Assembly (NCBI GenBank): GCA_913060565.1
Contig: CAJXRU010000026.1
Span: 1 to 39,598 of the forward strand
Reading direction: 5' to 3'
Length of the DNA stretch: 39,598 bases
Source: an uncultured Gammaproteobacteria bacterium
GTDB taxonomy: Bacteria > Pseudomonadota > Gammaproteobacteria > Enterobacterales > Psychrobiaceae
Position numbers and translations under genes: made by a program. The notes under the pieces are model-generated. The model worked only from the letters and a program-made list of their open reading frames with translations. It searched no databases and had not been told where the DNA came from. This document shows, in pieces, positions 856 through 34,675 of the stretch (position 1 is its first letter; each line of letters begins with the position of its first letter).

Positions 856-857
856 TC

Positions 858-2607: not shown

Positions 2608-2704
2608 TAAATACTCAGTTGGTAGAGATTATGTTTTAAAAACAATGACAAATTTATGGGTGTTTATTTTTATTTTATACTTTTTCGGTCGCAATGATGC
2701 CCAA

Positions 2705-3529: not shown

Positions 3530-3642
3530 ATTCGCTCTACATCAAGTGGTATAACAGCTCAATATACGCAAAATAACACGATAATCATTCGAACTATTTC
3601 CACGTAAAAACAGCAAGATAGTTCAAATTCTTAATATTTACA

Positions 3643-3656
3643 ATGATTTAAATCAT
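3643..3656. promoter_or_regulatory. FNR/CRP-family-like palindrome
   Basis: ATGATTTAAATCAT is a perfect 14-bp palindrome and contains the TGAT-N4-ATCA core of FNR-type boxes (consensus TTGAT-N4-ATCAA), with both outer bases different. It lies about 190 bases upstream of the predicted sigma-54 promoter and about 110 bases upstream of the divergent GIY-YIG gene. The match is by eye only, and AT-rich palindromes arise by chance. Confidence 0.35.
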
Positions 3657-3846
3657 CTCATTAAAAGTAAGTACGTGAAAGGCGCAAAAATTCCTGATAG
3701 TAAGCGAAATTTAGCAATTTCTCCTCTCTTCCATTTTGCAAACTGCCCTAATCCCGCATTGCAAAACGCAAATCCCAATATTTAACTACCAATACCAAAA
3801 CCAACAAAGTAGTTATAAAACAGCAACTTAAATAGCCAATTAATCT

Positions 3847-3861
3847 TGGTACGCTCCCTGC
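3847..3861 (+). promoter_or_regulatory. Candidate sigma-54 (RpoN) -24/-12 promoter
   Basis: TGGTACGCTCCCTGC matches the sigma-54 consensus TGGCACGN4TTGC with the invariant GG and GC dinucleotides at exactly the required spacing, followed by A. Start of transcription would fall near 3873, about 70 bases before the Wza-like ATG at 3944. Sigma-54 control of exopolysaccharide operons is known in related bacteria (for example the syp genes of Vibrio fischeri), which fits. Confidence 0.6.
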
Positions 3862-3943
3862 AATCCAGTGTTACATAGTTCATAACCACATTTGAAAACG
3901 CAAAACAGCCATCAACTGGATAAGCAACTACAAGGAGTGCGAT

Positions 3944-5215: not shown

Positions 5216-5223
5216 GTGATGAT

Positions 5224-6615
5224 ATGAAATATCCAATTGTCCCTTTAGATAGATTTGGTCTGATCCGTGCTCAAGTCTACCGCACGCTAAAACGCCCTTA
5301 CTTGGTGGTTGCGATAATGTGTTACGTGTTAATTGGTCTGTTTACTGCATTATATCTCGCCAAGACACCTGTTTACACCAGTGATATGGAGTTGGTATTG
5401 CCTGGTACAGGTAACAGTTCAAGTGTGTCGCTTAATGATATTGGTGAGGTAGTCTCAAAAACTAATACGCCGTTCTCTGGCGGTGGTTTTAACCCACGTA
5501 TTAATTACAAAGAAATGTTGTCAAGCCGCACTGTGATTGAGCGCGCGGCGGACAGCTTGCAAATTTCACCTGTTGATTTTGGCCGTGCAAAAATAAAGCT
5601 AACCGAACAAACGTCAATTATCACACTGCAAGTCAAAGGCAGCAGTCGCGAACAAGCGCAAGCCAAAGCGTTTGCGCTCTATCAGTCGTTTCAACAAGAG
5701 CTAGATAATTTACGTGCTGATGAAGTATTACGTCGCGATCAAAGTATCAAGAACATTCTAGGTCAATATCAAGAGCGCATGAACGATACCCGCAATGCAA
5801 TTGTCGATTTTCAACAACGTTCAATGCTTGTATCAAGCGATCAAATGGATCAATTAATTCGCACATTATCTGGCGTCAAAGAAAAGCATCTTTACACCAG
5901 CGCCGAGGTGCAAAAACTAAAAGAGTACATCAATCAATTGAGTGAAGAATTAGGTGTGTCGCCGCGTCATGCAGGCCAAGCATTTACGTTGCAATCTGAT
6001 ATTGAGTTTCACGCCTACGCTCGCGAGCTATCTACGACGGTGAGTACGCTAACTGAATACAGTGCGCGCTGGGGTAAAAAGCACCCTAAAGTGGTTGCTC
6101 AACAAAACCGCTTGCAGTTAACTCGCAATGCCATTGCTAATCGCTCACGTGAAATCTTTGGTATTGATTCTGCGGCTATTTTTACCAGCTTAGATTTAGA
6201 ATTAACGCCAAAACGCGCGCAATTATTTGCTGATCTCATCGATGGCTTTGCCAATTTACAAGGCCAAAAATCGATGTTAATTGACCTCGCTCGCTCTATC
6301 AGTCGCATGACAGATCAACTCAAAGTTTATTCGCGTGAGGTGATTGAACTAGAGCGTTTAGAGCGCGAATTTAATATGGCCGAAGCTATCTTTACCTCGG
6401 CTGCAGGCCGTATCGAAGCAAGCCGTGCTGATATATTTGCGTCATATCCCGTGATTCAATTACTGGCTAGTCCTTCTTATCCAGTGCTTAAAAGTAGTCC
6501 ACGCACATTAATTGCGTTTATCGCCGCCTTCGCAGGCATCTTCTTCGTCACCTTAGGATTAATCATCATATGGCAACGTGCACACTTAATCGAAATACTA
6601 CTGAAGAAAAGCTAG
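5224..6615 (+). CDS. Wzz/GumC-like chain-length determinant (polysaccharide co-polymerase) without kinase domain
   Basis: An inner-membrane protein that sets polymer length and links the polymerase to the outer-membrane exporter. Two membrane segments frame a large periplasmic region: YLVVAIMCYVLIGLFTALYL near residues 27-46 and IAFIAAFAGIFFVTLGLIII near the C-terminus. The proline-rich motif before the second segment (SPSYPVLKSSPRTLIAF) is typical. Between them is a long helical, coiled-coil-prone region (about residues 140-400). After the second membrane segment only a short tail remains, so the Wzc-type tyrosine kinase domain is absent. It starts 8 bases after the Wza-like gene, and its last 46 bases overlap the next gene, indicating co-translation. 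Confidence 0.9.
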   Translation: MKYPIVPLDRFGLIRAQVYRTLKRPYLVVAIMCYVLIGLFTALYLAKTPVYTSDMELVLPGTGNSSSVSLNDIGEVVSKTNTPFSGGGFNPRINYKEMLSSRTVIERAADSLQISPVDFGRAKIKLTEQTSIITLQVKGSSREQAQAKAFALYQSFQQELDNLRADEVLRRDQSIKNILGQYQERMNDTRNAIVDFQQRSMLVSSDQMDQLIRTLSGVKEKHLYTSAEVQKLKEYINQLSEELGVSPRHAGQAFTLQSDIEFHAYARELSTTVSTLTEYSARWGKKHPKVVAQQNRLQLTRNAIANRSREIFGIDSAAIFTSLDLELTPKRAQLFADLIDGFANLQGQKSMLIDLARSISRMTDQLKVYSREVIELERLEREFNMAEAIFTSAAGRIEASRADIFASYPVIQLLASPSYPVLKSSPRTLIAFIAAFAGIFFVTLGLIIIWQRAHLIEILLKKS

Positions 6616-7841
6616 TGTGGTATGCCATGGTGCTTACTTACCCTTGCTTTGCTATCGGTGCCTTATATGTCTCTGGCTCAGTGATTGGCTGGATGATCTT
6701 TGGCGTAGCCATGTTGCGCTGGTATATCAAAGGTATCGACAGTTCAGCGTATCTACCTAGCATTGTATGGCTGTGGATTGGCGGCGGCTTGGTATTGCTG
6801 CTCGCTCTATTCATTGCGCACGCTAACTGGGAGTTAGGTTTTGGCAAAACCATAAAATCAACGATTGGTTGGGCGAAAGGCTGGGCATTATTGCCGCTAT
6901 TTCTTTTCTTAGGCGCTATGGTCAACATTAAGCGTGAAATCATTATTCGCGCCGCATGTATTATCGCCATACATTCACTATTCTTCGGTGTTATTACGGT
7001 TGCCGCTTACATTGTGAAGCTTCCAGCGGACTTATTTGTATCACCATTAAAAGTAATTGGCGGTCCGGGTCCTGACTTTTTCACCGTTAGTTTTTACGGT
7101 CTCAATCCAGAAACGGGCATGGGTCGCTGGCGCTTTTTCGCTCCATGGGCACCTGCTGCTGGTTTTATGGCGTGCATGTTATTAATTTTCTGTAGCTTAG
7201 AAAAAAACAAAAGCTACAGAAATTGGGGCATCGTTGGCTGTGTTGTGATGTGTCTACTGTCGCAATCGCGCGCTGGCTGGGCCATTTTCATTATGCTTAT
7301 TCCAATGCTGATGTTCCTTGGCAAAATCAAAAGCCCACTGATGCTAATTATTATCGGCTTGGTAACTTGCTTATTTTTACTGGCAGCAGAAGTGATTTAC
7401 GACTGGATTTACACCTTGTATTCAGACATTAAAGCCGCACGCCCAGATTCAACGCGGGTACGCAGCGCACTGGCAAACATTGCGGTGCAACGCTGGGAAA
7501 CCCAAGCGCCGATTTGGGGACATGGCATTGTCGAGCGCGGCCCTAAAATTGTTGAATTTATGCCAATTGGTACTCATCACAGCTGGTACGGTCTGTTATT
7601 TGTCAAAGGTATTGTCGGGCTTCTCGCATTAGCAATTCCACTGCTGTTTACTGCGCTATATCTACTGCTAACTAGTTATCACTCACCAATGTCGCCAAGC
7701 GCATTTTGTATGGTGATGGTGCTGGTGTGTTATTCGTTTTTTGAAAACCTAGAAATTCTCGCCTACCTCTATTGGCCTGCACTGCTATGGATTGGCATGG
7801 CTCTAAACCCAAAAAAATCAGGAGTTCACTATGCATATTAA
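6570..7841 (+). CDS. O-antigen ligase/polymerase-family membrane protein (Wzy-like)
   Basis: A polytopic membrane protein with about ten hydrophobic segments and the Wzy_C/O-antigen ligase signature. Motifs seen are SQSRAGWAIFIMLIP (about residues 230-245), a large periplasmic loop, and THHSWYGLLFVKGIVG (near 337), whose His is conserved in ligases and polymerases. In a Wza/Wzz operon it most likely polymerises repeat units. Two starts are possible. ATG 6570 overlaps the Wzz-like gene by 46 bases with AGGA about 11 bases upstream. ATG 6627 lies just after the Wzz stop but has a poor Shine-Dalgarno. I keep 6570. The downstream pyruvyltransferase overlaps its end by 11 bases. Confidence 0.87.
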   Translation: MATCTLNRNTTEEKLVWYAMVLTYPCFAIGALYVSGSVIGWMIFGVAMLRWYIKGIDSSAYLPSIVWLWIGGGLVLLLALFIAHANWELGFGKTIKSTIGWAKGWALLPLFLFLGAMVNIKREIIIRAACIIAIHSLFFGVITVAAYIVKLPADLFVSPLKVIGGPGPDFFTVSFYGLNPETGMGRWRFFAPWAPAAGFMACMLLIFCSLEKNKSYRNWGIVGCVVMCLLSQSRAGWAIFIMLIPMLMFLGKIKSPLMLIIIGLVTCLFLLAAEVIYDWIYTLYSDIKAARPDSTRVRSALANIAVQRWETQAPIWGHGIVERGPKIVEFMPIGTHHSWYGLLFVKGIVGLLALAIPLLFTALYLLLTSYHSPMSPSAFCMVMVLVCYSFFENLEILAYLYWPALLWIGMALNPKKSGVHYAY

Positions 7842-8964
7842 ACAAAAACAAAGCAATCGCTTAAAGCAATATGATAGTTATGTCGTTGGTTACTACGGCA
7901 TGCAAAACAGTGGTGACGATGCCTTAATGTATTCAACATTATGGGGCGCTAAACACATGTTAAATCACAAACGCATCAGCTTAGGACTTTACGGTGTGCC
8001 AGATAAAGGTTTATTGGTCAGTCATCAGTTTCCTTTGCATCAACAACAGGCGTTTCCCGGTTACAACAGGTTGACTCACTATCGCGCTGCATTGCAAAGT
8101 AGTAATGTGATTTTTGGTGGTGGTTCAGTGTTACATAGCGAATCAGATATCAATCTTAAACGTCACATGCTTAAGTTAGCGTATGATCGAAAATCTCGTG
8201 CTGTAGGCGTGAGTTTAGGCCCTTTTGCCAATGTCGCCGCAGAAAAAGCCTGTGCTCTATTTCTCAATGAGTGCCCTTTTGTTGGCTTGCGAGACAAAGA
8301 AAGCCTTGCCATAGCCCAAGCTATTGCGCCACAGGCCAACGCTAAACTGACCTTTGATTTAGCACCAACCTTGCTTTATAGCACTCAAGTACCTGTACCT
8401 AAGGCGCGTCGTGGTATCGCCCTTGCCTTGTGCCCGGTTGCCGTTAATGCTTTTGGCGAAGTGGATATTCACGCCGAGCGTGAACGCATAACTCAGATCG
8501 CGCGTTTAATCGAAACCCTTTATCACCAAACAGGTGAGCCAATTACCCTATTGACCTTTAACGGCCACTGCCAACTTGGCGATGGGCAAATCAATCACGC
8601 CATCTTTAACAAGCTATGTGGAAAATTACCGTTAGTCGTTAAGCCTTATGACAATAATCCGTTGGCGGTGCTCAAGGATCTTGGCCAATATCAAGCCATC
8701 ATTAGCATGCGCTTACACGGCTCTATCCTTGGCTATCTGGCGCAAACGCCAGTGATATCTATTAACTATCACAGTAAATGTACAGGCTGGTGTCAACAAA
8801 TCGGTTTAGCCGATAAATATCAATACAGTGCCGATGAGTTTTCTATTAGTGCTATTTCTCAACGTATTAATGACGGTCTTAAGCAAGGTTTTACAGCGCC
8901 GCAACTATCCGTTGAAGATGCGCTATCTCAAACCCTATTAAATTGGAGTAATGATTATGAATAA
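7831..8964 (+). CDS. Polysaccharide pyruvyl transferase family protein
   Basis: Transfers a ketal-linked pyruvate from phosphoenolpyruvate onto a sugar, which would make the polymer acidic. PF04230 marks are the N-terminal YYGMQNSGDDALM, then NVIFGGGSVLHSESD, VGVSLGPF, VGLRDKESL, and the C-terminal SMRLHGSILGYLAQTPVISINYHSK with its conserved Arg-His pair. No signal peptide or membrane segment is seen, so it acts in the cytoplasm on the lipid-linked unit. The gene overlaps the Wzy-like gene by 11 bases, with AGGAG placed inside the end of that gene. It overlaps the following glycosyltransferase by a few bases, so the whole set is translationally coupled. The exact acceptor sugar is unknown. 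Confidence 0.9.
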   Translation: MHIKQKQSNRLKQYDSYVVGYYGMQNSGDDALMYSTLWGAKHMLNHKRISLGLYGVPDKGLLVSHQFPLHQQQAFPGYNRLTHYRAALQSSNVIFGGGSVLHSESDINLKRHMLKLAYDRKSRAVGVSLGPFANVAAEKACALFLNECPFVGLRDKESLAIAQAIAPQANAKLTFDLAPTLLYSTQVPVPKARRGIALALCPVAVNAFGEVDIHAERERITQIARLIETLYHQTGEPITLLTFNGHCQLGDGQINHAIFNKLCGKLPLVVKPYDNNPLAVLKDLGQYQAIISMRLHGSILGYLAQTPVISINYHSKCTGWCQQIGLADKYQYSADEFSISAISQRINDGLKQGFTAPQLSVEDALSQTLLNWSNDYE

Positions 8965-9901
8965 GCCACAATTTAGCGTTGTTATTCCGCTTTATAACAA
9001 AGAACAACACATAATTAGAACCCTTAACAGCATTGCCAAACAGTCATATGCGGCAAATGAAATTATCGTCGTTGACGATGGTTCAACAGATAATGGCCCG
9101 CAACTGGTGAGTGAATGTAACATCGACAATGTGACCTTGGTGCAGCAAAACAACGGCGGTGTTTCCAGTGCCAGAAATACGGGGATTTCGCTCGCTAAAC
9201 ATGAGTTTATTGCTTTTATCGATGCCGACGATCAATGGCTGCCATTGTATCTTGAGGAAATCGCTAATTTGGTGGCTAAGTTTCCGCAAGCGGGTGTTTA
9301 TGCAACCCATTATCAAGTTATCGAGCCGGGTAATAAATACGTCGATGCCAAAGTCAATCTCAAAAACGTCGATCCAACTGGCGAGCTGCTTGATGATTAC
9401 TTTGATGTGGCTTCAAAAGGCGATTTGCCATTTACGATGTCATCAATTACGGTGCGCAAATCACTGGTGAATAATATTGGAGACTTCCCATTAAACGAAC
9501 CGATGGGGGAAGATCAAGATTTCTTTTCACGTGCGGCAATGGCCAGTGATATTGCCTATTCACCGTCAATTCAATCGCTGTATCATCGTGATGCTACAAA
9601 CCGCGCTTGTCACTTAAACGTGCCGCATCAAGAATGTCCGTTTAGTGTGCGCGTGTCTCATCAGGCAATGAGCGCTAATCGCTCGCAAGCAAGTAAAGTA
9701 ACTATGCTTAGATATAGTGCGGCTCATTTATGTCATATAGCTAAGCTAAATATCATGGGGGGACAATTTTCACGAGCTAGAGCTTTATTAAGCGATCCGC
9801 GCTGTAAGCTCAAACCGAAACATCGTTATGGTTTATTAGTTTTGTCGTGGATAAAACAAAGCATGACACTGGGTCAGCGCTTTAAAAAACGACTTAGCTA
9901 A
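8957..9901 (+). CDS. GT2 family glycosyltransferase
   Basis: A GT-A fold inverting glycosyltransferase. It opens with FSVVIPLYNKEQHIIRTLNSI, followed by the nucleotide-binding IIVVDDGSTDNG, the acceptor-side NNGGVSSARNTGI, the DxD-type metal motif AFIDADDQW, and GEDQDFFSRA, which carries the likely catalytic base region. There is no membrane segment. Two ATGs are available. GGAG at 8945-8948 is only 2 bases before ATG 8951 but 8 bases before ATG 8957, so I choose 8957 (MNKPQ, 314 residues). The gene overlaps the pyruvyltransferase by 8 bases and is the last of the operon. Its stop overlaps the stop of the convergent histidine kinase by 8 bases, leaving no room for a terminator between them. 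Confidence 0.93.
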   Translation: MNKPQFSVVIPLYNKEQHIIRTLNSIAKQSYAANEIIVVDDGSTDNGPQLVSECNIDNVTLVQQNNGGVSSARNTGISLAKHEFIAFIDADDQWLPLYLEEIANLVAKFPQAGVYATHYQVIEPGNKYVDAKVNLKNVDPTGELLDDYFDVASKGDLPFTMSSITVRKSLVNNIGDFPLNEPMGEDQDFFSRAAMASDIAYSPSIQSLYHRDATNRACHLNVPHQECPFSVRVSHQAMSANRSQASKVTMLRYSAAHLCHIAKLNIMGGQFSRARALLSDPRCKLKPKHRYGLLVLSWIKQSMTLGQRFKKRLS

Positions 9902-24494: not shown

Positions 24495-24513
24495 TTAGTA
24501 AAAGGTGATTACC

Positions 24514-25656
24514 ATGCATTCATCAACAACGCTAAACGAACAAACCCTACAATTAGCACGAGCAGGCGATAAACAAGCATTCTCAATACTTGTTAATTAC
24601 CTCAACAACACAGTGCATGCAATTGCACTCAATATCACTCGTGACTTACAACATAGCCACGATGTTAGCCAGCTCGTATTTATCAAGGTATGGCAACAGC
24701 TCGATGAGTTAAAAACAAGCGACAGTCTTTTACCTTGGGTACGTCAAATTACCCGTTATACCGCCATTAACTTTGTGCGAGACAACAAACATCGCACCGA
24801 GTTAGCCAGCGATGACGCCACCATTGAATCATTGCTAGACGACGTGGTTAATAATCACGACCTCAATGAAAAATCGATGATTACAAGGCAACAAAATCAA
24901 GTCATTAATCACCTGATAGACCAATTACCAGATGAAAGTCGCGAAATCGTTTTACTCTATTATCGCCAAGAGCACGACAGCGCTGTTGTTGCCAACCTAT
25001 TAGGATTAACCACAGTCACCGTCCGAAAAAGATTGCAACGGGTACGTGAGCAACTCAAAGAGCAGGTATTGGAAAAATACGGCAAAGTGCTCTTTGCAAC
25101 GACGCCAATTGCCATTGATATTTCTCTAGCGCTCGCCACAAGTACAGCTTCCCCTCTTGCAGCCGCAACATTAGGAAGTCACGCCAGTATGAGCCAAAGC
25201 CATTGGTTGGGGAAATTAACCTACCTCTTAGGCGGCGCGATTATTGGTGCATTCTTTGGCGTGCTCGCCAATACTTTTGCGATTAACAAAACCATTAAGC
25301 ATATCGATAATGATGAAGACATTGCCTCTCTCAAACGCTTAAAACGTCACGGTAACATTTGGATAATTGGCAGTGCCCTCGCCCTTACCGCGAGTTATCA
25401 ATGGACACAAGGCTGGTTAATGCCTGTTATCACCTACGCATTATTCCTAATAGGGTTAACAGTTGTTGTGAATACGACTAACACAATCAGTCGCCAAAAC
25501 CTTCAGCGCCAAGCGCCTAACGACCAACGGGCTAGAAAATTACTGTCACGCAGTCAATGGACCTGCAAATTGGGCTACTTATTGGGATTTGGCGGCGGTA
25601 GTGCAGGACTGCTCATAGGTTTATATCAAAATGGCCGCTTTGAACTCTTATTATAA
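24514..25656 (+). CDS. ECF-type RNA polymerase sigma factor fused to a C-terminal membrane domain
   Basis: The N-terminal half is an ECF sigma factor. Region 2 is LARAGDKQAFSILVNYLNNTVHAIA through HDVSQLVFIKVWQQLDEL and PWVRQITRYTAINFVRDNKH. Region 4 is INHLIDQLPDESREIVLLYYRQ followed by the helix-turn-helix VVANLLGLTTVTVRKRLQRVREQL. The remaining 190 or so residues are not sigma-like. They contain about four membrane helices, for example YLLGGAIIGAFFGVLANTF, IWIIGSALALTASYQW, LMPVITYALFLIGLTVVV and LGYLLGFGGGSAGLLIGLY. No separate anti-sigma gene follows, so the membrane domain may itself tether the sigma factor until a signal releases it (inference). ATG 24514 is chosen: AAAGG lies 8 bases upstream, whereas the in-frame GTG 24505 overlaps that site. 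Confidence 0.88.
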   Translation: MHSSTTLNEQTLQLARAGDKQAFSILVNYLNNTVHAIALNITRDLQHSHDVSQLVFIKVWQQLDELKTSDSLLPWVRQITRYTAINFVRDNKHRTELASDDATIESLLDDVVNNHDLNEKSMITRQQNQVINHLIDQLPDESREIVLLYYRQEHDSAVVANLLGLTTVTVRKRLQRVREQLKEQVLEKYGKVLFATTPIAIDISLALATSTASPLAAATLGSHASMSQSHWLGKLTYLLGGAIIGAFFGVLANTFAINKTIKHIDNDEDIASLKRLKRHGNIWIIGSALALTASYQWTQGWLMPVITYALFLIGLTVVVNTTNTISRQNLQRQAPNDQRARKLLSRSQWTCKLGYLLGFGGGSAGLLIGLYQNGRFELLL

Positions 25657-25860: not shown

Positions 25861-28038
25861 ATGTTTAACAAAAATTTGCTAAAGGCAATTCCTTTGGCGT
25901 CAGCATTATTAGCTGGCAACGCGTTCGCTGATGAAGGCATGTGGCAACCACATCAATTAAAAGAAATTAGTGGCAAACTTAAAAAAGCAGGGCTTAAATT
26001 AGATCCGTCACAAATGGAAAACCTTGATCAGTTTCCAATGAATGCGATTATCAGTCTAGGTGGCTGTACTGCATCATTCTTATCTGACACAGGCTTAGCA
26101 ATTACTAACCACCACTGTGCTTACGGCTCAATTCAGTACAATTCGACTGAAAAGAAAAATTTATTAAAACAAGGTTTTGTTGCTAAAGATAAATCTCAAG
26201 AACTTCAGGCAGCGCCGGGTTCTCGTATTTACGTGACAGAATCACTCACCGATGTTACTGCTAAGATTACCGGTTCGATTCCTTCATCAGTGAAAGGACA
26301 AGCTTATTTCAAAGCCATTGAAAAAAATCAAAAAGAACTCGTTTCTGCATGTGAAACCTCACAAGATTACCGCTGTGAAGTCTACAGTTTCCACGGCGGC
26401 CTAGAATATTTCCTCATTAAACAGCTATCAATTCGTGACGTGCGTTTAGTGTACGCACCACCATCGAGCATCGGTAAATTTGGCGGCGATACCGACAACT
26501 GGATGTGGCCACGTCACACAGGCGATTGGGCATTCTACCGCGCATACGTTAGCAAAGACGGTAAACCAGCAGATTATTCAGAAGACAATGTGCCATTTAA
26601 ACCAAAAGCCTTCCTAAAAGTGAATGCCGATGGCGTTCGCAATAGTGATTACGTGATGGTACTTGGCTACCCAGGCCGTACCAATCGTTACCGCACCGTT
26701 GATGAAGTGGAAAACCAATTTACATGGGTGTACCCAACGTCTAAACAGTATCGCGAAGACTACATCAATATTATCAAAGACATTGCACCAGCTGGCAGTG
26801 ACGCACGCATCAAATACGAAAGTACATTAGCAAGCCTAGCTAACTACGCTAAAAACTTTGGTTCGATGATCGAAAGTTATAACAAAGGCGACATGCTCGA
26901 GCGTAAACAAGCAGAGTTACAGGCACTGCAACAGTGGATCAACAGCTCTAAACAGCGTAAGAACAAATACGCCAAAGCATTGACCGAACTAAACACGTTA
27001 ATTGCTCAAGGTAAAAAAGGTCAAGAACGTGATTTATTAATGGGTTACTTGGGTAGCACAAATATGATGAGCGTGGCCAAGCGTCTTTACCGTTTAGCCA
27101 ATGAAAAAACTAAGTCTGATACTGAGCGTAAACAAGGTTATCAAGACCGTGACATGAACCGTTTCACTCAAGGTATGAAACGCGTAAATCGTCGTTACGA
27201 CGCAGAGGTTGATAAGGCAGTTCTTGAGCACTTTATTGGTCTTTACGCACAGCTTCCTAAGAAAGAGCGCAACGCAACTTTTGACAAGTTCTTCGACATT
27301 AGCAAAAACTTCGACGCTAAAAAACTTGCGGCTAAGCTAAACATGATGCACAAAAACACCAAGCTTGATGAAGAAGCGACGCGTTTAGCATGGATGAATA
27401 AATCAGTAAGCGACTTTAAAAACAGCAACGATCCGTACATCCAATTTGCTGTGTCGCAATACGATAATGATCGCAAGTTAGAAAAGAAAGCTGAAGCATT
27501 ATTCGGCAAACTAGCACAAGCTCGCCCTGCCTTCATGGAAGCAATGATTGCTTATAAGAAGAGTAAAGGCGAACCAGTCTATGCTGACGCGAATAGCTCA
27601 CTGCGTATCACTTACGGCAACGTTATGGGATATTCACCACAAGACGGTATCACGGCAACACCATTTACGACATTGGAAGGCTTACTGGCTAAATACAAAG
27701 CAGGTGATGCTGAATTTGATTTATTCGACAACATTCGCAAAGCCATCGCTGATAAAAACTACGGTAAATACTACCGTAAAGATTTAGACTCAGTACCAGT
27801 AAACTACCTATCTAACCTAGATATCACGGGTGGTAACTCAGGCTCTCCTACCCTAAACGGTAAAGGTGAATTTGTTGGTTTAGTATTTGATGGTGTTTAT
27901 GAATCAATCATCGGTGATTGGGATTACGATACAAAGTACAAACGCGCAATCCACACCAGCGTGCCATTTATGCTATGGACAATGGAAAACATCGACGGTG
28001 CCCAAAACATTGTTGATGAAATGACTATCGTTAAATAA
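25861..28038 (+). CDS. S46 family dipeptidyl-peptidase (DPP7-like)
   Basis: A periplasmic serine exopeptidase that removes dipeptides from the N-terminus of peptides. A Sec signal (ending NAFA-DEG, about residue 23) precedes the mature MWQPHQL start typical of the family. The catalytic triad is His85 (ITNHHCAYGSIQYNS), Asp in GGDTDNWMWPRHTGDWAFYR and Ser in ITGGNSGSPTLNGKG. The segment after the Ser reads FVGLVFDGVYESIIGDWDYD, with Gly at the specificity position, which resembles DPP7 (hydrophobic P1) rather than DPP11 (Asp/Glu, where Arg occupies the site). Length 725 residues is normal. It stands alone with its own promoter and a downstream inverted repeat. It likely feeds amino acids to the catabolic genes in this window. 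Confidence 0.94.
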   Translation: MFNKNLLKAIPLASALLAGNAFADEGMWQPHQLKEISGKLKKAGLKLDPSQMENLDQFPMNAIISLGGCTASFLSDTGLAITNHHCAYGSIQYNSTEKKNLLKQGFVAKDKSQELQAAPGSRIYVTESLTDVTAKITGSIPSSVKGQAYFKAIEKNQKELVSACETSQDYRCEVYSFHGGLEYFLIKQLSIRDVRLVYAPPSSIGKFGGDTDNWMWPRHTGDWAFYRAYVSKDGKPADYSEDNVPFKPKAFLKVNADGVRNSDYVMVLGYPGRTNRYRTVDEVENQFTWVYPTSKQYREDYINIIKDIAPAGSDARIKYESTLASLANYAKNFGSMIESYNKGDMLERKQAELQALQQWINSSKQRKNKYAKALTELNTLIAQGKKGQERDLLMGYLGSTNMMSVAKRLYRLANEKTKSDTERKQGYQDRDMNRFTQGMKRVNRRYDAEVDKAVLEHFIGLYAQLPKKERNATFDKFFDISKNFDAKKLAAKLNMMHKNTKLDEEATRLAWMNKSVSDFKNSNDPYIQFAVSQYDNDRKLEKKAEALFGKLAQARPAFMEAMIAYKKSKGEPVYADANSSLRITYGNVMGYSPQDGITATPFTTLEGLLAKYKAGDAEFDLFDNIRKAIADKNYGKYYRKDLDSVPVNYLSNLDITGGNSGSPTLNGKGEFVGLVFDGVYESIIGDWDYDTKYKRAIHTSVPFMLWTMENIDGAQNIVDEMTIVK

Positions 28039-28520: not shown

Positions 28521-29675
28521 TTACTCAGTAACAAAAATCTTCTCATCCAACCTAGCTAATTGCTCCAACCAACCATCAACAGTTTGTTTATTATGAGGCG
28601 CAGGAGAAACACCTTGTGGCAATTCACCAGCCAACAACGACTCAATCGCAATAGCCACGGTCAATGATACTAAACGTGCCATCGCTGAACCGCGCTCATT
28701 TCCTTTCTCATCAATACCATAAGCCTGTTTAAATACCGTATTTTCACCGCTAGGATCTTTTACCTCTAACACAACAGACAGCACAACGCGATCAGCCTCG
28801 CCGTCGTCGTATTGGTGTTTATCCCACAAGTCATCACTGATAGCGGCTAATTTAGCCATGCCATCGTCACCGGTTAATGTGTCGACCTGAGTAAACAGTT
28901 CATCCCACGCCTGAGCCCAACCATTTAAACGCAATGTACCTCGCACAAATTCTTGCACATTCCAACCATCACTCATTCCATACTGACCAACAAAAGGCAC
29001 AGAATCACGATTTGGATACGCTTGAAAGGTTTCTGTCGTGCCATTGGCCAGCGGCATGTCAAAATCATTGAGCGCCGTCCATGGTTTTTGCGTAGTGGCA
29101 GGCGCGCCATTTTCAATCCATTGTGCAGGTGATTTTAATGCTTTTAACACCCCTAGTGGCGACCATGAAAACTTATACTTAAAATCATTTGGTACACTTG
29201 GGAAACCACCGCAATACGAGCGGAAAAAGTGCTGATTGTCTTTATTAAACGATGCTGACGATTGATAATCTTCTACTAATGCATGGGCTAAGAGATGATC
29301 TAAGCCAGGATCTAAACCCACTTCATTCACAAAACACAAATTGGCTGATTTTGCTTGAGCATCAAGAGCCTGCATCTCTGGCGAGATATAACTACTTGAA
29401 ACAAAATGTGCATTTTTAGCTAAACAAAGCTCAGCCACTTGCAAGTGCATGGTCGCAGGTAACATCGATACAACCACATCGCCAGTATTTACCGTTGCAC
29501 TTAATACATCCCAATCCAATGCTTTAACATCAACATCGCAACCTAAGGCATCAACCGCCTCTTGTGCTTTTGATAACGTACGATTCCACAAAATAAGCGG
29601 CTGCGGCGACAAGGCAATTTTCTCAATGCCAGGTAACGATGATAAGCCAGCGCCTAACCAATGAACTGTTTTCAT
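28521..29675 (-). CDS. Saccharopine dehydrogenase (L-glutamate-forming type)
   Basis: Splits saccharopine into glutamate and 2-aminoadipate semialdehyde with an NAD(P)+ cofactor. It begins with a Rossmann-type VHWLGAGLSSLPGIEKIA, continues with SMLPATMHLQVAELCL, FVSSSYISPEMQALD and the family mark FVNEVGLDPGLDHLLAHALVEDY, then YCGGFPSVPNDFKYKFSWSP. That order is characteristic of yeast Lys9/mammalian AASS C-half homologues. Length is 384 residues. It lies 9 bases after the lysine-forming saccharopine dehydrogenase, so the two steps from lysine to the semialdehyde are encoded together. No aminoadipate semialdehyde dehydrogenase is present in the window. Direction of flux (catabolic) is inferred from bacterial context. 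Confidence 0.9.
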   Translation of the reverse strand: MKTVHWLGAGLSSLPGIEKIALSPQPLILWNRTLSKAQEAVDALGCDVDVKALDWDVLSATVNTGDVVVSMLPATMHLQVAELCLAKNAHFVSSSYISPEMQALDAQAKSANLCFVNEVGLDPGLDHLLAHALVEDYQSSASFNKDNQHFFRSYCGGFPSVPNDFKYKFSWSPLGVLKALKSPAQWIENGAPATTQKPWTALNDFDMPLANGTTETFQAYPNRDSVPFVGQYGMSDGWNVQEFVRGTLRLNGWAQAWDELFTQVDTLTGDDGMAKLAAISDDLWDKHQYDDGEADRVVLSVVLEVKDPSGENTVFKQAYGIDEKGNERGSAMARLVSLTVAIAIESLLAGELPQGVSPAPHNKQTVDGWLEQLARLDEKIFVTE

Positions 29676-29684
29676 AACTCTCTC

Positions 29685-30752
29685 TTATAATTGTTTTATT
29701 TTTTCATTAAAGATGTTGTGAGCGCGTTGCCAAACACCTTGATTTAAATTATCTAATTGCAATAAATGCGGCAGTAATTGCTGACAAAAGTCTTCACTGC
29801 TTTCCACAGGTAATAGCGATGGTAAATGGTCAATAGCCACTAAATCTAACGGATTTTCACCATCAACAAGTCGTAATAACGGATTATCAAACGTTGTGCA
29901 TTGTTCATATATCGGCAAAGGATTGTAATCACCATAAGGATCGCAGCTCACATCACAAATGATGGCCAATTGACGGCTATTATCATTTAACATTTCTGTC
30001 GTTACAAATGGCGGTAATGCTTGTTGCACAAAAACACAATTAATCACGACATCAAAGGACAAAATATCAGCAAATGGGCCACCGACCTTAGTTTCTTCAA
30101 TGTCCCATTGCGTTACGTGTGCCCCTACTTTTTGGGCAAATTCTACGGCACCACGTCCACTGCGTCCCTTAGCGCCAATAACCAAAACGTTTGGTGGCGG
30201 AAGATTAGAAAATCCAGCCCCTACGTCATCAACCATCGCTTGTTGGTTACGATAAGAAGACAATGGCGCCAGCATTGGTGTTTGACGGGCAAGGCGTCCC
30301 GCGAACGCTTTTAGCGCCACACCAGCGCCTGCAAACCCAGCCCAATAACCAAAAGCTGCAACGCGCCGAGCATTGTCATCAACTAAATATTCTAAATCAA
30401 ATAACTGACCCCGACCGGATACAAAACGATTTAACACCTTCTTCCAACCACTTTGCTCTTTATAAGCATGAGCAAAATGAATGTGGCGATGCTTAAGTGG
30501 CGTCGTCTCTTCTTCGAGTTCTTTTAAACCCAAAATAATAATGCCATCGTCATCAAGCGTTTTCCAATGATGAGCAGGCGCTACGTCACAGCCAATAGCA
30601 CGATATTGCTGAACATCAATGGCGCTTTGCATTGATTCTTCAACGGTTACTTTAAACCCTGCATCAAGCAGCGCCTTAGCGACATTTGGCGTTAAAGCGA
30701 TACGCTCCTCTAACGGTTTGGTTTCGGCGCGTAGCCAAATATGAGTTTGCAT
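29685..30752 (-). CDS. Saccharopine dehydrogenase (L-lysine-forming type, lysine-ketoglutarate reductase activity)
   Basis: Joins lysine and 2-oxoglutarate into saccharopine (or the reverse). The sequence shows the alanine-dehydrogenase-like N-terminal domain (IWLRAETKPLEERIALTPNVAKALLDAGF, IILGLKELEEE, HIHFAHAYKEQSGW) and a nucleotide-binding domain (VLVIGAKGRSGRGAVEFAQKVGA), as in yeast Lys1. The chosen ATG at 30752 has AGGA 6 bases upstream and gives 355 residues. The longer in-frame start at 30800 would fall inside the 13-bp repeat of the promoter and has no Shine-Dalgarno. It is the first gene of the pair, 9 bases before the glutamate-forming dehydrogenase, and divergent from the kinase-aminotransferase fusion. 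The saccharopine route is uncommon in bacteria. Confidence 0.9.
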   Translation of the reverse strand: MQTHIWLRAETKPLEERIALTPNVAKALLDAGFKVTVEESMQSAIDVQQYRAIGCDVAPAHHWKTLDDDGIIILGLKELEEETTPLKHRHIHFAHAYKEQSGWKKVLNRFVSGRGQLFDLEYLVDDNARRVAAFGYWAGFAGAGVALKAFAGRLARQTPMLAPLSSYRNQQAMVDDVGAGFSNLPPPNVLVIGAKGRSGRGAVEFAQKVGAHVTQWDIEETKVGGPFADILSFDVVINCVFVQQALPPFVTTEMLNDNSRQLAIICDVSCDPYGDYNPLPIYEQCTTFDNPLLRLVDGENPLDLVAIDHLPSLLPVESSEDFCQQLLPHLLQLDNLNQGVWQRAHNIFNEKIKQL

Positions 30753-30787
30753 ACATTGTCCTGTCAGATCTTCAACATCAAGTGGCC

Positions 30788-30828
30788 ATATAGTATACAA
30801 AGCAAAAACAGGTGTATATAGTATACAA
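30788..30828. promoter_or_regulatory. Pair of 13-bp direct repeats in the shared lysine/hydroxylysine promoter
   Basis: ATATAGTATACAA occurs exactly twice, at 30788-30800 and 30816-30828, 28 bases start to start, in the 126-base gap between divergent catabolic genes. Each copy contains the palindromic core GTATAC. Two identical sites nearly three helical turns apart suggest a dimeric regulator, perhaps of the GntR type, that controls both directions. The regulator is not encoded in the window. Confidence 0.6.
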
Positions 30829-30878
30829 TTATATTTATCGTCGAATTTGCGTAGCGCATATTTTTTTAAAGGTTAGCC

Positions 30879-33224
30879 ATGTCGTCAAATGTTATTCACT
30901 CGCCAACGTCGGTCGAGCAAATCGTTCAGCTTGCAAAAACACATTATGGATTAGAGGTTAATGTCAAACCGCTGCCTGGTTATATTGATCTCAACTACCA
31001 ATTAACCGACGCCAATGGCTTGCGCTTTATTCTTAAGATTGCCAATGCCCAAGAGCCATTGGCCGAACTTGCGATGCAAAATCAGCTGATGACATTTTTA
31101 ACAACGACCACCGACAATACCACTAACACATTTGATTGTCCGTTGCCGATAAAAAGCCGCAACGGTGACGATATTGTCACACTGGCAGATAAAAATAAGC
31201 GTCCTCGTTATATGCGTTTACTCAGTTATATCGATGGCGTTTTTTATGCGAATCATCAGCATATTACTGACAAACATCTGACTCAGTTAGGCACAATGAC
31301 GGCCAAACTAACACTCGCGACTAGCGCATTTTCAAATACAAATGCAAAGCGCTACCTTGACTGGGATCTCAAACAATCGCCTAATGTAATCGATAATAAA
31401 ATAGCCTTTATTAACGATGATAAACAGCAACAAAAAATTGCCAACATTCGTCAAATGCTAGCGACGCAATTAATGCCATTTTCTGATGAGTTACCACATG
31501 GCGTGATCCACAACGACATCAACGATTACAATCTATTGCTCGATGGTGATGATGAACACGCTAACATCACTGGACTAATTGACTTTGGCGACATGGTGCA
31601 CAGCTATCAAGTTAATGACTTGGCAATAGCGTGTGCTTACGCATTACTCGGCAGAGAAAATCCATTGGATGTCATCAAGAAAATCGTCGCTGCTTATCAT
31701 CAAACCAGTGCGCTTACGCCAACAGAATTGTGGGTACTGTTTCCATTAATTTGTGCCAGACTGGCCACCAGCGTATGTAATTCAGCGCAGGCAGTCTTAG
31801 ATGAACCAGACAACGACTACCTCTTGGTTTCAGCACAACCAGCATGGCAAGCCATTGATAAACTATTGGCCTTTGATGCACCCACTGTCGGTTTTGAATT
31901 ACAACGGCTGTGTAACATCACGCCACAAGCCTCACCACGCCATCAAGAAATCCTTGCGCAGCGCAAAGAACATCTATTTCAAACATTGAGTATTTCTTAT
32001 CAAGATCCGCTGTTAATAGAGCGTGGACAAGCACAATACCTACTCGATGAAAACAACATCGCCTACCTCGATATGGTCAATAACGTATGCCATGTTGGTC
32101 ACTGCCACCCAAAGGTTGTTAGCGCAGGCCAACAACAAATGGCTAAGCTCAATACCAACACCCGTTATTTACATCAAAACCTCGTCAATTATTCAAAAGC
32201 GTTACTCGACACCCTTCCCAAAGAGCTGTCTGTCGTGATGTTTGTTAATTCAGGTAGTGAAGCCAATGAACTGGCAATGCGGCTCATGGAATGTGCCACC
32301 CAATCACAAGAATTAATCGTGGTTGATGGCGCTTATCATGGCAATACCAATAAAGCGATAGAAATAAGCCCGTATAAATTTAATGGCCCCGGCGGCGATG
32401 GGCCCAAAGAACATATTCATATTGTGCCGATGCCCGATCCTTATCGCGGCCAGCACACTGGCATGACAGAACAAACTGGCAACGCCTATGGTAAATATGC
32501 TGTGCAGAAAATTAACCAACTACGCGCTCAAGGTAAACAACTTGGCGGCTTTATTTGTGAGTCGTTACAAGGGGTTGGCGGCAATATTATTATGCCGCCA
32601 GGTTATTTGAAATCAGTCTATCAAGCCGTCAAAGCCGCAGGAGGCTTGTGTATTGCCGATGAAGTACAAGTAGGCTTTGGCCGTGTAGGACATCATTGGT
32701 GGGGATTTGAAACACAAGATGTTGTGCCTGACATTATTACCTTAGGAAAACCCATTGGTAATGGCCACCCACTTGGCGCTGTCGTCACAACACAAGCGGT
32801 TGCCGATGCTTTTGTTACAGGCATGGAGTATTTTAATACCTTTGGCGGTAATCCTGTTTCCTGTGCCATCGGCCATGCTGTCCTTAACACGATTATCGAA
32901 GAAGACTTACGCAGCAATGCCGCAACTACTGGCGATTACTTCATACAGCAGCTTACCGAGCTGGCGGCAACACAACCTCTGATTGGTGACGTGCGCGGCT
33001 TAGGCCTGTTCATTGGGGTAGAACTTATACTTGATGACGCTCTAACACCAGCAACATCAATTGCTAAAAATCTTTGTGAGCAATTAAAAGCGCAACATAT
33101 ATTGCTCAGCCTTGATGGCCCACACAACAACGTATTAAAAATAAAACCGCCAATCGTCTTTAATCAGCGCAACGTCGACTATTTCATCGCGCAGCTTAGT
33201 CAATTACTCGCGGCGGTAAAATAA
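30879..33224 (+). CDS. Hydroxylysine kinase - phosphohydroxylysine phospho-lyase fusion (predicted)
   Basis: Two enzymes in one 781-residue chain. Residues 1 to about 340 are an APH-fold kinase that resembles human HYKK along its length. Shared parts include GYIDLNYQLTDANGLRFILKI, the catalytic loop HGVIHNDINDYNLLL, the metal motif GLIDFGDMVHSY and the distinctive DNDYLLVSAQPAWQAIDKLL. Residues about 365-781 are a class-III PLP aminotransferase fold with FVNSGSEANELAMRL, CIADEVQVGFGRVG-type Asp, and PLP Lys624 (LGKPIGNG). Human AGXT2L2/PHYKPL of this fold breaks 5-phosphohydroxylysine into ammonia, phosphate and 2-aminoadipate semialdehyde. The divergent saccharopine genes make the same semialdehyde, which favours hydroxylysine over ethanolamine. 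Its stop overlaps the NhaC-type gene by one base. RBS AAAGG precedes the ATG. Confidence 0.82.
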   Translation: MSSNVIHSPTSVEQIVQLAKTHYGLEVNVKPLPGYIDLNYQLTDANGLRFILKIANAQEPLAELAMQNQLMTFLTTTTDNTTNTFDCPLPIKSRNGDDIVTLADKNKRPRYMRLLSYIDGVFYANHQHITDKHLTQLGTMTAKLTLATSAFSNTNAKRYLDWDLKQSPNVIDNKIAFINDDKQQQKIANIRQMLATQLMPFSDELPHGVIHNDINDYNLLLDGDDEHANITGLIDFGDMVHSYQVNDLAIACAYALLGRENPLDVIKKIVAAYHQTSALTPTELWVLFPLICARLATSVCNSAQAVLDEPDNDYLLVSAQPAWQAIDKLLAFDAPTVGFELQRLCNITPQASPRHQEILAQRKEHLFQTLSISYQDPLLIERGQAQYLLDENNIAYLDMVNNVCHVGHCHPKVVSAGQQQMAKLNTNTRYLHQNLVNYSKALLDTLPKELSVVMFVNSGSEANELAMRLMECATQSQELIVVDGAYHGNTNKAIEISPYKFNGPGGDGPKEHIHIVPMPDPYRGQHTGMTEQTGNAYGKYAVQKINQLRAQGKQLGGFICESLQGVGGNIIMPPGYLKSVYQAVKAAGGLCIADEVQVGFGRVGHHWWGFETQDVVPDIITLGKPIGNGHPLGAVVTTQAVADAFVTGMEYFNTFGGNPVSCAIGHAVLNTIIEEDLRSNAATTGDYFIQQLTELAATQPLIGDVRGLGLFIGVELILDDALTPATSIAKNLCEQLKAQHILLSLDGPHNNVLKIKPPIVFNQRNVDYFIAQLSQLLAAVK

Positions 33225-34675
33225 TGCATAACACGCCAAAATCAGCCAGCATGCTAGATGCACTAACGCCAATTGTCGCACTAGTACTCATGTTAAGTGC
33301 CTCTGTGTATTTATTTTCATCAGACAGTTCATCAGGCGCCAACCAAATTGCCCTGATATTGGCGGCCTGTATTGCGCTGGCGATAAGTTTTAAAAATGGC
33401 CACCGCTGGCCAGCCTTGGAGCAAGGTATCACCAATAGTATTGCGTCGGCATCAGGTGCCTTCTTGATCTTATTTGCCGTTGGCGCATTAATTGGCACTT
33501 GGTTGTTAAGCGGCACCGTGCCAACGATGATTTATTACGGCATGAAACTACTAAGCCCTCAATATTTTTATGTGGCTAGTTGCTTGCTATGCGCCGTCGT
33601 TGCTTTGAGCATTGGCAGTTCATGGACAGTCGCCGGCACCTTAGGCATCGCCTTAATCGGTATTGCCGGCGTGCTAAATCTCAGCCTAGAAATAACCGCT
33701 GGCGCTATTATTAGTGGTGCGTATTTTGGTGACAAAATGTCACCACTATCTGATACAACCAACTTAGCACCAGCAGTGGCAGGCACTGATATCTTTAAAC
33801 ACATCAAGCATATGTTATGGACAACCACGCCGAGCATTTTGATTGCACTAACAATTTTTTTAATTATTGGATTAAACCAACACATTAGTACCACTAGTCT
33901 CGGCATAGATGACACGCTCACAAGGTTAGAGTCCAACTATCACGTTGGTTTGCATTTACTCTTTCCACTCGTTGTTGTTCTAATATTGGCCTACTGCAAA
34001 GTACCCGCCTTTCCAACCATTATCCTTGGCACAATCGCTGGCGCAATTTGCGCGCTAATATTTCAATTTGATGCGATAGTCAAAGGCGTGAATGACGCCA
34101 GCCTCGCCAGCAGCGTTGCCGCAATTAAAGGATTGTGGATAGCGATGTTTAATGGCTATGTTGCAGACACCGGCAATGGTAATCTTGACTCACTACTGAG
34201 TCGCGGCGGCATGAGTAGTATCTTAAACACCATATGGCTGATTATGTGCGCGATGGCATTTGGCGGCATCATGGAAGTCAGTGGCATGTTAAAACGCTTA
34301 CTTACTGCGATACTGTCCTTAGTTAATGGCGCTACCAGCTTAGTGTTAACCACGCTAGCCACCTGTATTGGCACCAACATCATTACCTCAGATCAATACA
34401 TTGCCATCGTCTTACCTGGCCGTATGTTAAAGCTTGAATATGAAAAATATAATCTAGATACAGTCAACCTGAGCCGCGCAATTGAAGACTCAGCCACAAT
34501 AACCAGCCCGCTCATTCCATGGAATACCTGTGGTGCATACATGGCAGGCGCACTGGGTGTCGCCACCTTTGCCTACTTGCCCTATGCGTTTTTTAATCTG
34601 ATATGTCCATTAGTTAGCGCAGCGTATGCCATAAAGCAATTTAAAATGATGCCATTGGCCCCGCAACCAGCATAA
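33224..34675 (+). CDS. NhaC-family Na+/H+ antiporter-like transporter
   Basis: A 483-residue polytopic inner-membrane protein with about eleven to twelve hydrophobic segments. NhaC-family marks include a conserved GSSWTVAGTLGIALIGIA, SGAYFGDKMSPLSDTTNLAPAVAG, a second-half GYVADTGNGNLDSLLSRGGMSS and EDSATITSPLIPWNTCGAYMAG. Family members exchange sodium for protons or for small organic acids and amino acids. The ATG overlaps the stop of the kinase-aminotransferase fusion (TAATG), so the two are translationally coupled. That suggests uptake of the substrate or maintenance of the sodium gradient for it; the first is my preferred reading but is inference. It is convergent with the GST gene, only 11 bases away. 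Confidence 0.88.
   Translation: MHNTPKSASMLDALTPIVALVLMLSASVYLFSSDSSSGANQIALILAACIALAISFKNGHRWPALEQGITNSIASASGAFLILFAVGALIGTWLLSGTVPTMIYYGMKLLSPQYFYVASCLLCAVVALSIGSSWTVAGTLGIALIGIAGVLNLSLEITAGAIISGAYFGDKMSPLSDTTNLAPAVAGTDIFKHIKHMLWTTTPSILIALTIFLIIGLNQHISTTSLGIDDTLTRLESNYHVGLHLLFPLVVVLILAYCKVPAFPTIILGTIAGAICALIFQFDAIVKGVNDASLASSVAAIKGLWIAMFNGYVADTGNGNLDSLLSRGGMSSILNTIWLIMCAMAFGGIMEVSGMLKRLLTAILSLVNGATSLVLTTLATCIGTNIITSDQYIAIVLPGRMLKLEYEKYNLDTVNLSRAIEDSATITSPLIPWNTCGAYMAGALGVATFAYLPYAFFNLICPLVSAAYAIKQFKMMPLAPQPA

What the first reader, a model, noticed from the sequence alone, without database searches (positions are those of the whole stretch)
28521..34675. Predicted lysine + hydroxylysine catabolic locus converging on 2-aminoadipate semialdehyde
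Two saccharopine dehydrogenases (lysine to semialdehyde) are divergent from a fused HYKK-like kinase and PHYKPL-like phospho-lyase (hydroxylysine to the same semialdehyde). In animals these are separate enzymes. Hydroxylysine is typical of collagen, so this could be a bacterial route for collagen-derived amino acids, supported by nearby secreted peptidases. To my knowledge the linkage in one bacterial locus is little described.
Basis: partly seen in the sequence, partly recalled or inferred. Interest (0 to 1): 0.85.

Follow-up and report, generated by a model that had tools for sequence, protein, structure and literature searches.

The report
Bacterial collagen hydroxylysine-to-lysine salvage locus
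These four marine-bacterial genes probably take hydroxylysine, the modified amino acid that marks collagen, and turn it back into ordinary lysine, a route we have not seen described; the prediction rests on gene neighbourhoods and sequence motifs, not on an assay.

Summary
A 781-aa fusion of an APH-fold kinase and a phospho-lyase (30879-33224 +) is followed by an overlapping NhaC transporter gene and is divergent from a LYS1-type and a LYS9-type saccharopine dehydrogenase (30752-28521 -). The hydroxylysine reading is strongly supported: in relatives the gene directly upstream of the fusion is often a GH2 beta-galactosidase (30 of 80 loci), and galactose genes, GH63 alpha-glucosidase, M9 collagenase or AASA dehydrogenase recur nearby. 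This suits Glc-alpha-1,2-Gal-beta-hydroxylysine of collagen. The window's own genome carries GH2, GH63, M9 and a 4-hydroxyproline epimerase on other contigs. The lysine-catabolism part is probably backwards. In 24 of 44 fusion genomes searched, the window's included, no AASA dehydrogenase is found and the saccharopine pair is the only recognised AASA sink; none of the 44 lacks both. The pair has fungal lysine-forming cofactor motifs (NADP type on the LYS9-like enzyme, NAD type on the LYS1-like one), whereas the two operons found with an AASA dehydrogenase have them swapped. Best reading: hydroxylysine -> phosphohydroxylysine -> AASA -> saccharopine -> lysine. No enzyme was assayed.

The parts
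30879..33224 (+). Fused APH-fold kinase (aa ~1-340, predicted hydroxylysine kinase) and class-III PLP phospho-lyase (aa ~353-781, predicted 5-phosphohydroxylysine ammonia-phospho-lyase)
   Evidence: Pfam APH and Aminotran_3; lyase half best PDB match human ethanolamine-phosphate phospho-lyase 6TOR, 462 bits, 49% identity in the fold comparison; AlphaFold2 model mean pLDDT 87
29685..30752 (-). LYS1-type saccharopine dehydrogenase (NAD-type motif QWDIEET), predicted saccharopine -> lysine + 2-oxoglutarate
   Evidence: best PDB match yeast LYS1 3UGK 320 bits; human AASS 63 bits; motif table
28521..29675 (-). LYS9-type saccharopine reductase (NADP-type motif WNRTLSKAQ), predicted AASA + glutamate -> saccharopine
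   Evidence: Pfam; best PDB match Magnaporthe saccharopine reductase 1E5L, 149 bits; human AASS 121; motif table
33224..34675 (+). NhaC-family transporter, predicted hydroxylysine/lysine uptake
   Evidence: TIGR00931 over cut-off; present in 14 of 22 loci that have the saccharopine pair; NhaC/COG1757 'lysW' lies under lysine riboswitches elsewhere (PMC5584792, passages)
30791..30800 (.). Candidate operator copy 1, TAGTATACAA, in the divergent promoter region
   Evidence: conserved in the same-genus genome G006 with the same 28-base spacing
30819..30828 (.). Candidate operator copy 2, TAGTATACAA
21322..23424 (+). S9 prolyl oligopeptidase, possible but unproven accessory
   Evidence: Pfam; not seen beside the locus in G006
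25861..28038 (+). S46 dipeptidyl-peptidase-like protein, possible but unproven accessory
   Evidence: Pfam S46, 837 bits; not seen beside the locus in G006

Best explanation
The locus salvages hydroxylysine from collagen into lysine. Inferred steps: collagenase, GH63 alpha-glucosidase and GH2 beta-galactosidase (encoded elsewhere in this genome; GH2 next to the fusion in many relatives) strip Glc-alpha-1,2-Gal from hydroxylysine; the NhaC-type protein imports the free amino acid; the kinase half of the fusion makes 5-phosphohydroxylysine; the PLP half eliminates ammonia and phosphate, giving 2-aminoadipate 6-semialdehyde (AASA). In this organism AASA is not oxidised but condensed reductively with glutamate by the LYS9-type enzyme (NADPH) to saccharopine, which the LYS1-type enzyme (NAD+) splits into lysine and 2-oxoglutarate. 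Related bacteria replace the last two steps with AASA dehydrogenase (to 2-aminoadipate), or have both. Shown: gene content, linkage, co-occurrence, motif types. Inferred: every reaction, the transport and the direction.
For: (1) GH2 cluster in 31 of 80 loci, directly upstream on the same strand in 30 of these (one member, L026, checked against Pfam); GH42 beta-galactosidase in 9 of 10 Dyella-type loci tested; two or more of eight galactose-related clusters in 17 of 80, M9 cluster in 3, GH63 cluster in 12 (representatives identified). (2) 295 genomes of the order: GH2 at >=61% identity in 7, all among the 8 with the full-length fusion (hypergeometric p 2e-13, not corrected for kinship). (3) The own genome has GH2, GH63, M9 and 4-hydroxyproline epimerase. 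(4) An ALDH cluster in 20 of 80 loci; L073's member is not AASA dehydrogenase, so at most 19; the four others scanned (L026, L051, L018, L040) pass the NF050084 cut-off. (5) 44 fusion genomes: AASA-DH absent/LYS1 present 24, present/absent 12, both 8, neither 0. (6) Cofactor motifs: 33 of 34 SDH2 are WNR (NADP type), the exception being L134; 34 of 34 window-type LYS1 are WD..ET (NAD type); the two AASA-DH operons found, L134 and L153, have WD and WGR instead. Genome G079 holds both kinds.
Against: Nothing was assayed. The lyase half is most similar among solved structures to a human phosphoethanolamine enzyme, and sequence alone cannot exclude that substrate; the own genome also has an acetaldehyde dehydrogenase ExaC. 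Seven of the 8 genomes with both A and S have the window-type LYS1 (G068, G069, G075, G076, G079, G088, G093); in L018 and L049 it shares a locus with the ALDH cluster, and there lysine degradation is possible (in G079 the dehydrogenase lies by the second, swapped-motif pair). In G004/G088 no SDH2 lies beside the LYS1 gene (L124). NAD-type LYS1 motifs also occur in LYS1-like proteins without the fusion (L116, L117, L119-L121, L154). Only two AASA-DH operons served for the motif comparison, and the dehydrogenase of L153 is cut by a contig end (571 of 730 bits). With kinship controlled the A/S exclusion is not significant (6 independent pairs, median p 0.25). 26 of 80 loci, the long alphaproteobacterial fusions among them, show none of S, AASA-DH, GH2, GH42 or two galactose clusters, some of them on short contigs. 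The 80 loci are the best of 176, so they lean towards close relatives.
Confidence: 0.62

Rival explanations
1. Hydroxylysine and lysine are both catabolised: the saccharopine pair runs lysine -> AASA, joining hydroxylysine-derived AASA, which an unrecognised aldehyde dehydrogenase oxidises.
For: Hydroxylysine side as above; AASA dehydrogenase co-occurs with the window-type LYS1 in seven of the 44 genomes (G068, G069, G075, G076, G079, G088, G093), in one locus in L018 and L049; both saccharopine reactions are reversible (established knowledge of LYS1/LYS9, recalled).
Against: No NF050084 match over cut-off in the own genome (best 290 of 730 bits) nor a match at E <= 1e-120 in 23 further fusion genomes with LYS1; four of the own-genome ALDH matches score higher with other models; cofactor motifs opposite to those of the two AASA-DH operons.
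Confidence: 0.24
2. The fusion is an ethanolamine kinase/phosphoethanolamine phospho-lyase making acetaldehyde; the saccharopine genes are unrelated neighbours.
For: Best PDB match of the lyase half is human ethanolamine-phosphate phospho-lyase; ExaC acetaldehyde dehydrogenase, 926 of 900 bits, in the own genome.
Against: Recurrent neighbours handle AASA, galactose and collagen; saccharopine pair linked in several arrangements; GH2 co-occurrence. No search for ethanolamine genes was made.
Confidence: 0.06
3. The lyase half is an ordinary omega-transaminase and the APH half a kinase of another small molecule.
For: Class III fold shared with transaminases.
Against: The two best of 94 PDB matches are both phospho-lyases, 462 and 299 bits against 177 for the next; fused to, or in the split loci paired with, a kinase.
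Confidence: 0.05

Closest known systems
Animal hydroxylysine kinase (HYKK/AGPHD1) and 5-phosphohydroxylysine phospho-lyase (PHYKPL/AGXT2L2), Veiga-da-Cunha et al. 2012 (not held; reference entry seen, content recalled)
   Same: Kinase plus class-III PLP phospho-lyase giving AASA
   Different: One fused bacterial protein; linked to saccharopine or AASA-DH genes and to glycosidases; likely lysine-forming outlet. Kinase-lyase fusions as such are not new: I recall that bacterial fusions guided the 2012 work (unverified), and a 2025 review with a passage on gene fusions has it in its reference list
Fungal lysine biosynthesis LYS9 + LYS1 (1E5L, 2AXQ; 3UGK)
   Same: Same two enzyme types and same cofactor motif types
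   Different: AASA would come from hydroxylysine, not from 2-aminoadipate; bacterial
NCBIfam NF004799 (PRK06148) kinase + aminotransferase proteins, 1015 positions
   Same: Best NCBIfam match, 922 bits
   Different: Below its 1128-bit cut-off; the middle segment of the model (an M23 peptidase segment, recalled) is missing; 781 aa
Colwellia collagen/hydroxyproline cluster (PMC7883544, section 12 read, other passages)
   Same: Collagenase-led utilisation in C. piezophila and C. psychrerythraea GAB14E, both of which also carry the fusion (L026, L043)
   Different: That cluster handles proline and hydroxyproline; the word stem 'hydroxylys' has 0 occurrences in the main text
[quoted passage not shown]
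   Same: Predicted role of the GH63 neighbour
   Different: Different glycosidase family; substrate of the GH63 enzymes untested

Membership tests
Hydroxylysine kinase / 5-phosphohydroxylysine phospho-lyase | APH-fold kinase with intact catalytic residues | tested here: met
   Pfam APH 82 bits; HNDINDYN and IDFGD motifs; D213, N218, D235 invariant in 30 rows
Hydroxylysine kinase / 5-phosphohydroxylysine phospho-lyase | Phospho-lyase branch of class-III PLP enzymes with PLP lysine | tested here: met
   6TOR 462 bits and 5G4I 299 bits, next 177; K624 invariant in 30 rows
Hydroxylysine kinase / 5-phosphohydroxylysine phospho-lyase | Acts on hydroxylysine / phosphohydroxylysine | not testable with these tools
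   genomic context only
Hydroxylysine kinase / 5-phosphohydroxylysine phospho-lyase | Closer to human HYKK and PHYKPL than to ETNPPL | not tested
   no chain named HYKK or PHYKPL appeared in the PDB lists
NF004799 (PRK06148) | Score over the curated cut-off of 1128 bits | tested here: not met
   921.8 bits
LYS1 saccharopine dehydrogenase (NAD+, L-lysine-forming) | Full-length similarity and NAD-type motif | tested here: met
   320 bits over residues 5-350; QWDIEET against KWDIKET; activity untested
LYS9 saccharopine reductase (NADP+, L-glutamate-forming) | Domain architecture and NADP-type motif | tested here: met
   Pfam both domains; 1E5L 149 bits, WNRTL against CRTL; activity untested
Saccharopine-pathway lysine degradation | AASA dehydrogenase in the genome | tested here: not met
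   own genome best 290 bits, cut-off 730; a dehydrogenase of another family cannot be excluded
Saccharopine-pathway lysine degradation | NADPH-type lysine side and NAD-type glutamate side (recalled rule) | tested here: not met
   opposite motifs; two AASA-DH operons as comparison
NhaC antiporter family | TIGR00931 over cut-off | tested here: met
   429 of 370 bits; substrate untested

The most novel reading that the evidence does not exclude
A bacterial pathway that converts collagen's hydroxylysine into lysine: kinase/phospho-lyase fusion to AASA, then LYS9- and LYS1-type enzymes working in the fungal biosynthetic direction, as the amino-acid end of a gene set that strips Glc-Gal from hydroxylysine. 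In effect a bacterium makes lysine by half of the fungal route, from animal matrix.
Probability: 0.55. Interest if true: 0.88.

Novelty: new variant of a known kind. Interest (0 to 1): 0.8.

Why it matters
Hydroxylysine is a signature of animal collagen, and how bacteria use it is hardly described. My ten searches of the held library showed no title or abstract opening that reports a bacterial hydroxylysine kinase/phospho-lyase pathway; several lists were capped (20 of 659 papers, 15 of 120, 20 of 35, 12 of 262) and most subscription journals are not held. The fusion with its glycosidase and collagenase partners would give a marker for collagen turnover in the sea and on bones and carcasses. 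If the lysine-forming direction holds, it is a new way of making lysine, with a simple test by rescue of a lysine auxotroph. It would also suggest a function for relatives that NCBIfam still calls hypothetical.

Tried and rejected
Ethanolamine phospho-lyase: considered because of 6TOR; judged less likely on context, but no ethanolamine genes were searched for. Lysine riboswitch: no Rfam family at gathering score in the window. My first label 'TonB receptor' for the gene upstream of the fusion was wrong; Pfam shows GH2. 'c50' in Dyella loci is an ORF antisense to the GH42 gene. L073's ALDH neighbour, first counted as AASA-DH, is not one. A plasmid search for more degradative LYS1 operons (12 records) led to five regions (two Streptomyces, Embleya, Photobacterium, Paraburkholderia); no AASA-DH was recognised in the tables or the maps, so they were no use as controls. 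GntR operator: the 8-mers TATAAATA and AATACTAT occur in 20 and 18 of 20 GntR-GH2 gaps; they resemble, but are not, the window's TAGTATACAA pair, so the operator stays a candidate. The own genome was not searched for the GntR gene. M9 and GH63 backgrounds in the order were not measured (only the 14 control genomes: M9 in 0; GH63 YgjK_N in 1, E. coli). Of the nine own-genome ALDH matches, five were scanned. One rhizobial relative (L159) lies by amino-acid transport genes with no annotated glycosidase, and six long alphaproteobacterial loci have none of the marker clusters, so I do not extend the collagen reading to them. The fold search listed only matches of PLP-enzyme size and name in its top 50, so it says nothing on the kinase half.
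Full report
What is there. On the minus strand lie a LYS1-type (29685-30752) and a LYS9-type (28521-29675) saccharopine dehydrogenase nine bases apart; divergently, the kinase/phospho-lyase fusion (30879-33224) and an NhaC-family transporter whose start codon overlaps the fusion's stop. The contig belongs to a 4.35-Mb genome in 215 contigs, in the same genus as G004, which has the same contig coordinates as G088, the genome of L040, a MAG labelled Psychrobiaceae. The fused protein models well (mean pLDDT 87). Its lyase half matches human ethanolamine-phosphate phospho-lyase 6TOR at 462 bits and Arthrobacter A1RDF1 at 299, well above the next protein at 177. Its kinase half finds only weak PDB matches, the best a homoserine kinase at 27.5 bits. 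Relatives are common: 1883 plasmid records have a match, 293 over at least 80% of the query, all below 60% identity.

Neighbourhoods. One scan for the fusion gave 80 named loci, the best of 176 relatives. Neighbouring ORFs were clustered by BLAST and a few members of each cluster identified with profile libraries; the rest go by cluster. The saccharopine pair is in 22 of 80; an aldehyde dehydrogenase cluster in 20, of which L073 is not AASA dehydrogenase; both in 2 (L018, L049). Four scanned dehydrogenases (L026, L018, L040, L051) pass the NCBIfam cut-off for L-piperidine-6-carboxylate dehydrogenase, the AASA-oxidising enzyme. A GH2 beta-galactosidase cluster is in 31 of 80 loci, in 30 of these directly upstream on the same strand. 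Dyella and Rhodanobacter types carry a GH42 beta-galactosidase instead (9 of 10 loci tested). Two or more of eight clusters I treat as galactose-related, GH42 among them, occur in 17 of 80; galactokinase, galT, KDPGal aldolase and galactonate dehydratase pass their model cut-offs, galM passes a subfamily model only, while the lactonase-like and kinase-like clusters c10 and c14 drew no NCBIfam match there and are named from recall. A GH63 YgjK-like cluster is in 12 and a small M9 collagenase cluster in 3 (L024, L041, L061). In Shewanella genomes G060 and G062 a run GH2, symporter, galK, galM (named by similarity) lies about 6-7 kb from an M9 collagenase, and in Pseudoalteromonas G058 GH2 and GH63 are adjacent. 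Collagen's hydroxylysine bears Glc-alpha-1,2-Gal (PMC8626586, passages), so these neighbours fit that substrate closely. 26 of the 80 loci show none of these markers, some of them on short contigs.

Genome-wide tests. In 44 fusion-bearing genomes: M9 in 37 (0 of 14 controls), GH2 in 41, GH63 YgjK_N in 41 (1 of 14 controls; five of the 41 are weak, at about 100-115 bits). The window's own genome has all three, on other contigs, and a 4-hydroxyproline epimerase at 598 bits over a cut-off of 376. In 295 genomes of the order the full-length fusion (>=47% identity) is in 8 (weaker matches in 12 more are not counted here, among them a split kinase/lyase pair in G119 and a 34% match in G036, both with AASA dehydrogenase). 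GH2 at >=61% is in 7, all 7 among those 8; G291 lacks it; the next GH2 hits, at 54% and 46%, are in genomes without the fusion. The window-type LYS1 (>=58%) is in 4, all among the 8; five more genomes have LYS1-like proteins at 41-46% and no fusion. Hypergeometric p is 2e-13 and 2e-7. The identity limits were set after seeing the gaps in the lists, and the genomes are related, so these are indications only. AASA dehydrogenase is in 47 of 295. Each of the 8 fusion genomes has it or the window-type LYS1.

Where does AASA go? Across the 44 fusion genomes: AASA dehydrogenase absent and LYS1 present 24; present and absent 12; both 8; neither 0. So each such genome has a recognised AASA sink, and in more than half it is the saccharopine pair alone; SDH2 was seen beside or fused to LYS1 in all 24. 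Raw Fisher p is 6e-6; with tree-independent pairs A and S never change the same way, but 6 pairs are too few (median p 0.25). Several of these genomes are MAGs, where absence can be a gap. The window genome's best AASA-DH score is 290 of 730 bits among nine matches. Of five scanned, four score higher with other models: SSADH, MMSDH and ExaC over their cut-offs, alpha-ketoglutaric semialdehyde dehydrogenase below its own; the fifth lies beside the hydroxyproline epimerase and matched nothing at the limit set.

Direction. Lysine-degrading pairs use NADPH on the lysine side and NAD+ on the glutamate side; fungal lysine-forming pairs use NADPH on the glutamate side (LYS9) and NAD+ on the lysine side (LYS1); the residues after the second Rossmann strand report the preference (established knowledge, recalled). 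Of 34 SDH2 proteins, 33 read W-N-R (like fungal C-R-T) and one, L134, reads W-D. All 34 window-type LYS1 proteins read W-D-x-x-E-T, as in yeast LYS1, while L134 reads W-G-R. L134 (Kordiimonas) is a LYS1-SDH2-AASA-DH operon. A second, L153, with one further gene between and the dehydrogenase cut by the contig end, has the same swapped motifs (W-D, W-G-R), and its genome G079 also holds the fusion-linked pair L030 with the window-type motifs. Other LYS1-like proteins without the fusion are mixed (L116, L117, L119-L121, L154 W-D; L118, L135 W-G-R), so the LYS1 motif alone is not diagnostic. I conclude that the fusion-linked pair is probably wired to turn AASA into lysine. Both reactions are reversible and seven genomes have the window-type LYS1 together with AASA dehydrogenase, so this stays an inference.

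Transport and control. NhaC-type 'lysW' is a family found under lysine riboswitches (PMC5584792, passages; the paper also notes a suggested role in pH control). Here the NhaC cluster is in 14 of the 22 loci with the pair and also in L016, L040 and L062 without it, so it may carry hydroxylysine or lysine. Two TAGTATACAA copies 28 bases apart lie between LYS1 and the fusion and are conserved in G006. A GntR-like regulator cluster occurs in 37 of 80 loci and may bind such sites; none was sought in the window's genome.

Known and new. The 2012 animal work is known to me from recall and from reference entries; kinase-lyase fusions as such were probably noted there. The marine bone study PMC7883544 (section 12 and passages) describes a collagenase/hydroxyproline cluster in Colwellia piezophila and C. 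psychrerythraea GAB14E, both of which carry the fusion (L026, L043), but has no occurrence of 'hydroxylys' in its main text. A 2026 paper mentions a Herbaspirillum operon with a gene annotated hydroxylysine kinase next to an aminotransferase gene, without assigning the pathway in the one passage seen (PMC13275390). No paper listed in my ten searches appeared to describe the pathway; several lists were capped and the library lacks most subscription journals, so prior description cannot be excluded.

Noticed in passing
L093 (G000:C53), 345-2943: Own genome has 4-hydroxyproline epimerase next to an aldehyde dehydrogenase gene: a likely hydroxyproline-degradation operon, the other collagen-rich amino acid.
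   Followed up: partly
L067, L069, L072, L074, L079, L081 and L159 (Shinella plasmid): Alphaproteobacterial fusions of about 1010 aa with an Lrp/AsnC-type regulator gene at or near the fusion (annotated so in L159, cluster c17 named from recall in the others) and no glycosidase cluster seen: possibly the same chemistry with another source of substrate.
   Followed up: partly
L051, L053, L057, L063: Undibacterium loci keep kinase and lyase as separate adjacent genes behind an AASA dehydrogenase, with a cysteine-desulfurase-like and a further conserved gene (names recalled).
   Followed up: no
L126, L128, L130, L018: LYS1-SDH2-NhaC units are flanked by a TonB-receptor-like gene (recalled), a tryptophan-halogenase-like gene and a SapC gene; function of the last two here unknown.
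   Followed up: no
L045, 7538-9757: Ferrimonas aestuarii has LYS1 and SDH2 fused in one 739-aa protein, as in animal AASS but with the window-type cofactor motifs.
   Followed up: partly
L116, L117, L119-L121, L154: LYS1-like genes with no SDH2 recognised in the stretch fetched; substrate unclear.
   Followed up: no
window 25-9901: Polysaccharide biosynthesis genes (WecG-type glycosyltransferase, export protein, pyruvyl transferase).
   Followed up: no
window 24505-25656: Sigma-70-like protein of 383 aa whose part after residue ~186 has no Pfam match.
   Followed up: no
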